Shown here: in pieces, positions 5,821 through 5,954 of the stretch | Position numbering within the stretch: the stretch's first letter is position 1 | Layout: each line of letters opens with the position of its first letter | NCBI GenBank assembly: GCA_031288855.1 | Contig: JAITQQ010000022.1 | Coordinates: forward strand, 1 to 7,629 | DNA length: 7,629 nucleotides | Reading direction: 5' to 3' | Source: Prevotellaceae bacterium | Lineage (GTDB): Bacteria; Bacteroidota; Bacteroidia; Bacteroidales; UBA932 | The notes under the pieces: model-generated | What the model was told of the DNA's origin: nothing | The model's database searches: none | The model's input: only the letters and a program-made list of their open reading frames with translations | Position numbers and translations under genes: made by a program

Positions 5821-5954
5821 ATTCCTTATAAGTAATATTTTTGCAAATATAGTAAGAATTTTAATTATAAGTAATATTTTATATTTTTTTGATATTTTTA
5901 TTACTTATAAGTAATGTTTTTGCATTTTATGCATTTTTATTACTTATAAACTCA
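5821..5954. repeat. Four-copy palindromic repeat array upstream of the ATPase gene
   Basis: The best copy, ATTACTTATAAGTAAT (5900-5915), is a perfect 16-bp palindrome. Related copies lie at 5821-5836 (one mismatch), 5860-5875 (right half intact, left half degraded) and 5939-5954 (left 11 bases intact, right half lost). Copy starts are 39, 40 and 39 bp apart. The first and third copies also share the following bases, giving 23 matches over 25 positions and ending in TTTTTGCA. The region is extremely AT-rich (16 G+C in 120 bases, 5821-5940). It fills the gap between ligA and the ATPase gene and runs into the ligA stop codon. It could be an operator array, a recognition site for the ATPase, or an element boundary. 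Confidence 0.8.
5844..5874 (-). promoter_or_regulatory. Promoter of the ATPase gene, flanked by palindromic sites
   Basis: A perfect -7 box TATATTTG (5844-5851 on the minus strand) is preceded, 20 bp away, by TTA (5872-5874) in place of TTG. Transcription would start about 5837-5839, some 22 nt before the ATG at 5816. One palindromic site (5860-5875) covers the -33 position and another (5821-5836) covers the first transcribed bases and an AAGGA ribosome binding site. These are typical operator positions, so repression by a protein binding the palindromes is inferred. Confidence 0.55.

What the first reader, a model, noticed from the sequence alone, without database searches (positions are those of the whole stretch)
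5821..5954. Regularly spaced palindrome array wrapped around an ATPase promoter
Four copies of a site related to the palindrome ATTACTTATAAGTAAT occur at 39-, 40- and 39-bp steps in a region with 16 G+C in 120 bases. Two copies sit exactly where operators would be: one over the -33 position and one over the transcription start and ribosome binding site of the AAA_14/DUF4143 ATPase gene. The gene and array look like one cassette. The protein has no obvious DNA-binding repressor neighbour, so either the ATPase binds its own array or a regulator elsewhere does. I know of no described function for such arrays.
Basis: partly seen in the sequence, partly recalled or inferred. Interest (0 to 1): 0.7.

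Follow-up and report, generated by a model that had tools for sequence, protein, structure and literature searches.

The report
ATPase gene with its own operator array
The repeated palindromes lie over the promoter of a candidate phage-defence ATPase gene, and comparison with about a hundred relatives suggests that each such protein reads its own private, evenly spaced DNA sites to control its own gene.

Summary
The array is real: three good copies and a half copy of ATTACTTATAAGTAAT at 39/40/39-bp steps (0.03 matches expected in the window, three found). It is one case of a family pattern. Most relatives of the neighbouring AAA_14-wHTH-DUF4143 ATPase, in several phyla, carry two to four copies of their own palindrome, with different letters, at a pitch of about 40 bp across their promoter: 39-40 bp is the best spacing in 72% of 91 relatives against 7% of 300 control genes. 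Site letters follow the protein's winged helix, above all helix 3. In six genomes the site tested occurs above background only at its own gene. At the ligA locus gene and array are present or absent together; in Parabacteroides, orphan sites remain where the gene is gone. The ATPase itself is therefore most likely the array's reader, an autoregulator. PADLOC files it as PDC-S01, an abundant phage-defence candidate without proof; its nuclease-like domain lacks the catalytic lysine in 117 of 117 aligned members. Some other branches peak at 32 bp. No binding data exist; repression, cooperativity and defence are inferred.

The parts
5821..5836 (-). Copy 1 (ATTCCTTATAAGTAAT on the + strand), just before the ATG, over the probable transcript start and ribosome binding site
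5860..5875 (-). Copy 2 (TTTAATTATAAGTAAT on the + strand), over the probable -33 region
5900..5915 (-). Copy 3, perfect palindrome ATTACTTATAAGTAAT
5939..5949 (-). Half copy 4, overlapping the ligA stop codon (5944-5946)
5844..5851 (-). -7 box TATATTTG (TAnnTTTG) of the ATPase promoter; such a box lies between the last two copies in 47 of 93 relatives
   Evidence: box consensus recalled
4611..5816 (-). AAA_14-wHTH-DUF4143 ATPase, 401 aa, PADLOC family PDC-S01
5007..5201 (-). Winged-helix region, residues 206-270; predicted helix 3 (residues 246-258) lies at 5043-5081
4623..4922 (-). PD-(D/E)XK-like domain, residues 299-398: E307, E330, D332, Q345 present, lysine of ExK replaced (A347)
   Evidence: motif assignment from recall
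5944..7629 (-). ligA (NAD-dependent DNA ligase, start outside the window), conserved neighbour whose end marks one border of the cassette
3360..4544 (-). ODP/flavodoxin flavoprotein gene, conserved neighbour on the other side; directly next to ligA in 8 of 30 fetched relatives' loci, none of which has the ATPase gene
   Evidence: searched as 3360-4541, without its Met

Best explanation
The array is the private autoregulatory operator of the adjacent ATPase. The protein (STAND/Orc-like AAA domain, winged helix, PD-(D/E)XK-like domain) binds each ~18-bp palindrome, presumably as a dimer through helix 3 of the winged helix, and neighbouring dimers at a fixed pitch of about 40 bp probably contact one another. 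Bound copies cover -33 and the start/RBS and so throttle the gene (negative autoregulation; sign inferred). Array and gene are gained and lost as a unit, and paralogues examined in one genome have different sites, so several can coexist without crosstalk. SHOWN (computationally): pitch, site diversity, covariation with the winged helix, genome-wide uniqueness of the sites tested, presence/absence polymorphism. INFERRED: binding, dimers, cooperativity, repression, role of ATP, and the downstream (possibly anti-phage) function.
For: Pitch: 39-40 bp is the best palindromic-repeat spacing in 72% of 91 relatives (ties shared out) against 7% of 300 other genes of the same loci; spacings in 93 promoters with a pair found at 39-41 bp are 40 (89), 39 (19), 41 (9), 38 (1); without that constraint 51 and 14 of 79 loci peak at 40 and 39. 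Covariation: among 90 loci, site distance follows the winged helix when the other regions are held fixed (partial r 0.27, 0 of 1000 permutations); AAA, 271-298 and nuclease-like regions give -0.03, -0.03, -0.06, linker 0.06 (109 of 1000). The best 13-residue window of the scan is 245-257, in predicted helix 3; helix 3 stays above chance when loci are thinned to 61, 35 and 21 (0, 3, 4 of 500). Uniqueness: TTTACGATATACATGAAA in 6 genomes of 5.5-8.6 Mb gives 19 places, 14 in the arrays; the other 5 all have 2 mismatches, against 4 for the reversed control. Paralogues in one genome carry different palindromes at pitch 39-40: three in G001, three of four in G751.
Against: No binding or expression data. 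Only 48 of 79 upstream regions beat all 30 of their own shuffles when any spacing from 25 to 55 bp may win, and 24 of 117 aligned relatives have no pair above the 95% null score. The partial r is modest; only 6 of the 20 best single columns lie in the winged helix. With 65 loci the 151-205 region scored like the winged helix (0 of 500 each) and the nuclease-like region 15 of 500. Thinned to 35 loci the linker scores better than the winged helix (2 and 28 of 500), and at 21 loci the whole winged helix is not significant (214 of 500) although helix 3 is. A -7 box was found between the last two copies in only 47 of 93 promoters. Activation instead of repression is not excluded.
Confidence: 0.84

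Rival explanations
1. An unlinked host regulator binds the array and controls the ATPase.
For: Promoters with operators bound by regulators encoded elsewhere are common (general knowledge); no call shows binding by the ATPase.
Against: Site letters follow the ATPase's own winged helix; much the same pitch accompanies the gene in records named as Bacteroidota, Fibrobacter-type, Spirochaetes, Desulfobacteraceae and Bacillota; in the genomes tested the site occurs elsewhere only at background level.
Confidence: 0.08
2. The array is a recombination, homing or transposon end that moves the gene, and control of the promoter is secondary.
For: The cassette is present or absent at ligA; the ligA end of the empty site L165 itself contains ACTTATAA.
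Against: In the window the matches lie only upstream of the gene, and so do the array matches of the six genomes; no recurrent partner gene was found in 80 loci; where a box was found it sits between the last two copies (47 of 93); in Parabacteroides L292 and L293 sites stay behind where the gene is gone.
Confidence: 0.05
3. The array is a larger nucleoprotein platform (iteron- or partition-like), with the ATPase acting like an Orc1/Cdc6 or DnaA protein.
For: Fold matches to Orc1/Cdc6 and a weak profile match to DnaA (E 0.05); evenly spaced repeats beside the gene.
Against: 72 of 93 promoters have only two detected copies; at the ligA locus the cassette is dispensable.
Confidence: 0.04
4. AT-rich chance repeats or an RNA leader structure.
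For: The region has 16 G+C in 120.
Against: 0 of 200 shuffles reach three matches; five copies in L022; 72% against 7% in controls; the leader RNA folds little better than shuffles (z -1.1, 27 of 200 as good).
Confidence: 0.01

Closest known systems
PDC-S01, PADLOC phage-defence candidate, single gene
   Same: Window protein matches model PDLC04787 over nearly its full length (476 bits, residues 1-399); PMC12988326 describes PDC-S01 as an ATPase fused to a PD-(D/E)-X-K member (passage read).
   Different: No operator or autoregulation is mentioned in the passages read; this branch lacks the catalytic lysine.
Archaeal AAA+ ATPases PABY2304 (2qen) and SSO1545 (2fna)
   Different: Identity 16-17%; whether their genes carry arrays was not examined.
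NLR/CED-4 NB-ARC-WHD (STAND) modules
   Different: There the winged helix is a nucleotide-switch element (recalled); here it appears to read DNA.
Orc1/Cdc6 initiators with origin repeats
   Same: AAA plus winged helix; DNA-bound structures are the top Foldseek matches.
   Different: Here two to four palindromes over a promoter, and no sign of an origin was seen (not searched for).
Autoregulated repressors with tandem operators, e.g. NanR on a (GGTATA)3-repeat operator (PMC8012715, search listing with start of abstract only)
   Same: Repeated sites over a promoter.

Membership tests
PDC-S01 | Match to a PADLOC PDC-S01 model | tested here: met
   476 bits, residues 1-399 of 401
PDC-S01 | Located among defence genes | tested here: inconclusive
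   In the window it sits among ligA, flavoprotein, grpE and dnaJ. Neighbours in 80 loci were only clustered, not searched for defence genes.
PDC-S01 | Protects against phage | not testable with these tools
AAA_14/DUF4143 ATPases | Pfam PF13173 and PF13635 above cut-off | tested here: met
   114.9 and 73.2 bits
AAA_14/DUF4143 ATPases | Walker A and B intact | tested here: met
   K34, D92 and E93 in 117 of 117
PD-(D/E)XK nucleases | Catalytic lysine of ExK | tested here: not met
   A, C, S or T at that position in 117 of 117; position assigned from recall of the motif and the model
PD-(D/E)XK nucleases | Acidic residues of the active site | tested here: met
   E307 and D332 in 117 of 117, E330 in 116 of 117
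STAND/NLR-type NTPases | AAA core followed by a winged helix | tested here: met
Autoregulatory DNA-binding protein | Site unique to its own promoter | tested here: met
   Above background, for the sites and genomes
Autoregulatory DNA-binding protein | Protein binds the site and changes transcription | not testable with these tools
   needs EMSA and reporter assays
Transposon or homing element | Terminal repeats on both sides or a mobility gene | tested here: inconclusive
   Matches only upstream in the window and six genomes; no recurrent partner in 80 loci. A XerC/D-like recombinase lies at 374-1246 of the window, beyond four other genes; its role was not tested.

The most novel reading that the evidence does not exclude
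The array is more than an operator: it is the parking scaffold of a one-gene sensor. The NLR-like ATPase is held inactive on its private sites, and an event that strips it off (phage takeover, fork passage, DNA damage) both derepresses the gene and frees the protein to act on the cell or the invader through its degenerate nuclease-like domain. Each paralogue has a private address, so many such sensors can run in one genome without crosstalk.
Probability: 0.17. Interest if true: 0.85.

Novelty: new variant of a known kind. Interest (0 to 1): 0.63.

Why it matters
PDC-S01 is reported as the fourth most common defence across prokaryotes, while validation is pending for most such candidates (PMC12988326, passages read). 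A conserved self-operator gives a first molecular activity to test (sequence-specific DNA binding), a natural reporter of when these genes are induced, and a set of about 90 protein-site pairs from which a recognition code for helix 3 could be worked out. The missing lysine also questions whether this branch is a nuclease at all.

Tried and rejected
Searching the exact 16-mer in viral contigs gave 21 stretches with one place each, not pursued; the nine viral loci with a relative of the protein were used only as four rows of an alignment. The first structure model from 23 rows was poor (pLDDT 71) and was replaced by one from 106 rows. The sequence profile found no convincing solved structure (best E 0.05); NCBIfam gave nothing over a cut-off; Rfam nothing. 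RNA structure of the leader is unremarkable. A recurrent partner gene was sought in 605 neighbour ORFs within 3 kb in 80 loci and not found, except an AAA_14-like ATPase in 5 of 80 and three groups in 3 of 80 each (groups named by eye). VIA-align rows cover residues 1-300 for the most part, so the fold of the C-terminal domain was not tested by search; its PD-(D/E)XK naming rests on recalled motifs, the model and the passage.

Literature: PMC searches for DUF4143/AAA_14/palindrom, DUF4143, DUF234/archaeal ATPase/STAND and others, AAA_14, COG1373, COG1672, SSO1545/Paby2304, PDC-S01, guilt-by-embedding, and AAA+ ATPase/autorepress/palindromic operator listed no paper that, from what was seen, describes operators or autoregulation of this family; most subscription papers are not in that library. 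Papers seen: passages of PMC12988326, PMC13356809, PMC5760070 and PMC3861447; one passage and section 7 of PMC4406477; the rest search listings only. The -7 box consensus, the ExK motif and STAND biology are recalled.

Rows dropped: L031 and L098 (too short upstream; L098 with an internal stop) from the pitch and site counts; L073, L082, L091, L098 and 5 of 9 viral loci not put into A2; A1 used 22 and A2 25 of the 120 listed hits (of 7259); covariation used 93 of 117 loci with site score above 108, then 90 after removing those of 93% identity or more; L194 and L224 left out as repeats of L069 and L030; the paralogue survey looked at 30 fetched loci of 60 listed matches.

Full report
What was observed. 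The window holds rpsU, a tyrosine recombinase, an HPF-like gene, dnaJ, grpE, an ODP/flavodoxin flavoprotein, the AAA_14/DUF4143 ATPase (4611-5816, minus) and ligA (the HPF, dnaJ and grpE names are mine from the sequence). Between the ATPase start and the ligA end lie copies of ATTACTTATAAGTAAT starting at 5821, 5860, 5900 and 5939; the third is perfect and the fourth is a half site across the ligA stop. Three matches within 3 mismatches compare with 0.03 expected and 0 of 200 shuffles. No whole genome is held for the window.

Relatives have the same design with other letters. Upstream of most of them lie two or more copies of a palindrome whose core is roughly NNNNNNTA.TANNNNNN and whose flanking letters differ from group to group: for example TTTTCCCATAGGAAAA in termite-gut Fibrobacter-type bins (L025, L028), TTTACGATATACATGAAA or close variants in Parabacteroides, Pedobacter and Chitinophaga, TTTCAATTATAATAGAAA in a Paludibacter bin (L090). 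When all spacings from 25 to 55 bp compete, the best pair lies at 40 bp in 51 and 39 bp in 14 of 79 loci; 48 of 79 beat all 30 of their own dinucleotide shuffles and 31 do not. With another score and spacings 20-60, 40 alone wins in 42 and 39 alone in 12 of 79. With 12 further loci, 72% of 91 peak at 39-40 (ties shared out) against 7% of 300 upstream regions of other genes in the same loci. A pair at 39-41 bp above the 95% null score was found in 93 of 117 aligned relatives. In these 93 promoters, 72 have two copies, 17 three and 4 four; adjacent copies are 40 bp apart 89 times, 39 bp 19 times, 41 bp 9 times, 38 bp once; a Bacteroidota -7 box lies between the last two copies in 47 of 93, against 1 of 93 in a control segment of up to 40 bp further upstream. 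Of nine relatives on plasmid or phage records, the best spacing is 39-40 in four (L253, L255, L258, L259) and tied with 33 in a fifth (L252); among them are Clostridia, where a palindrome overlaps a TATAAT- or TATACT-like hexamer; the other four show another best spacing; no shuffles were done for these nine. Of six more relatives in genomes related to L022 (34-48% identical), two peak at 40.

The sites tested belong to the gene alone. TTTACGATATACATGAAA (up to 2 mismatches) in six genomes gives 19 places: 14 are in the arrays, including all with 0-1 mismatch; 5 lie elsewhere, each with 2 mismatches, against 4 for the reversed control. In the L022 genome 3 of 4 places of the window's 16-mer (up to 2 mismatches) are in the array. 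G013, G014 and G015, where no close copy of the ATPase was found (best relatives 33-45% identical), hold none; G016 and G029 hold 2 and 1, each with 2 mismatches, at the level of the reversed control. Paralogues in one genome have different sites at pitch 39-40, e.g. three in Parabacteroides gordonii (G001) and three of four in G751; of the 16 upstream stretches fetched for this, 9 peak at 39-40 and 7 do not. Nine genomes have 2 to 15 DUF4143 matches each at E 0.001, the P. gordonii genome 12 and the Pedobacter borealis genome 15, some below the family cut-off.

The cassette comes and goes. Among 40 genomes (L022's own and 39 relatives), 30 ligA loci were fetched; none shows the ATPase within the fetched flank, and 8 have the flavoprotein next to ligA (L164, L165, L181, L183, L186, L188, L189, L193); the other 22 have other neighbours or short flanks and say little. 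In L165 (ligA 90%) 3 bp separate the ligA stop and the flavoprotein ATG; L164 (92%) keeps the last codons of the ATPase (HVYVFDFLQQTL) but neither array nor the rest of the gene. L022 (ligA 89%) has the whole cassette. In the genus of P. gordonii the ATPase lies before a gene I name DUF5063-like by eye; of 30 fetched loci (38 genomes) only P. gordonii has it, while the 99%-identical neighbour L292 retains one site, L293 two sites 40 bp apart, and neither has the gene there; the genome of L292 (G790) has no relative at E 1e-30. Whether the shared bases at the 3' border there are remnants of the gene or original flank is open. The family is patchy: 11 of 395 sampled genomes of the Pedobacter phylum (rows at E 1e-110 or better) and 38 of 395 sampled genomes of the Parabacteroides class.

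What it works like, and what it is. It works like an autoregulated repressor with a tandem operator whose reader is an AAA+ protein. By family it is PDC-S01, which PMC12988326 calls the fourth most common defence across prokaryotes, with validation pending for most PDCs (passages), and which PMC13356809 reports as the most frequent individual locus in its rumen genomes (passage). E307, D332 and Q345 are kept in 117 of 117 and E330 in 116, but the lysine is replaced in 117 of 117, so cleavage by this branch is doubtful. Other DUF4143 branches with an ExK lysine (L116, L117, L129, L136, L137) also have repeats, at 32 bp: 12 of 46 upstream regions of mostly distant members peak at 32, 8 of them above all 20 shuffles; 21 of 46 beat all shuffles at any spacing and 25 do not. 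For one of these, TTGCGATTACAATCGCAA, the genome G004 holds exactly two places, 32 bp apart, at the gene. The pitch therefore seems to be a property of the protein branch. One expression hint: an AAA_14/DUF4143 gene of Thermus thermophilus (TT_P0211) rises 6.6-fold in plasmid-bearing cells with Argonaute (PMC4406477, section 7); its promoter was not examined.

Verdict. Binding and repression remain to be shown at the bench.

Noticed in passing
L116, L117, L129, L136, L137 and others (upstream of DUF4143 genes): Other DUF4143 branches have palindromic repeats at a 32-bp pitch, including members that keep the ExK lysine.
   Followed up: partly
L164 (about 1382-1518, between flavoprotein and ligA, minus strand): A ligA-flavoprotein junction keeps the last codons of a deleted copy of the ATPase.
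   Followed up: yes
L292, L293, L294 (upstream of the DUF5063-like gene): One and two orphan operator copies (L292, L293), and by eye a possible decayed one (L294), where the P. gordonii ATPase is missing.
   Followed up: partly
window 5939-5949 and L165 around 3160: The ligA end in the empty site contains ACTTATAA, the core of the window's palindrome, at the very point where the cassette sits in relatives; chance or target choice is unknown.
   Followed up: no
L029, L040, L069 (3 of 80 loci); plasmid loci L254 and L258: A Fic-like gene lies beside the ATPase in several unrelated records (in one search named by eye).
   Followed up: no
L140 / G001:C1:2534055-2537928: Three DUF4143-type ATPase genes in a row in Parabacteroides gordonii; the two on the + strand carry different palindromes at pitch 40, the third showed no repeat above shuffles.
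   Followed up: partly
plasmids collection: 170 of the 218 plasmid records with a relative are Acinetobacter plasmids; their promoters were not examined.
   Followed up: no
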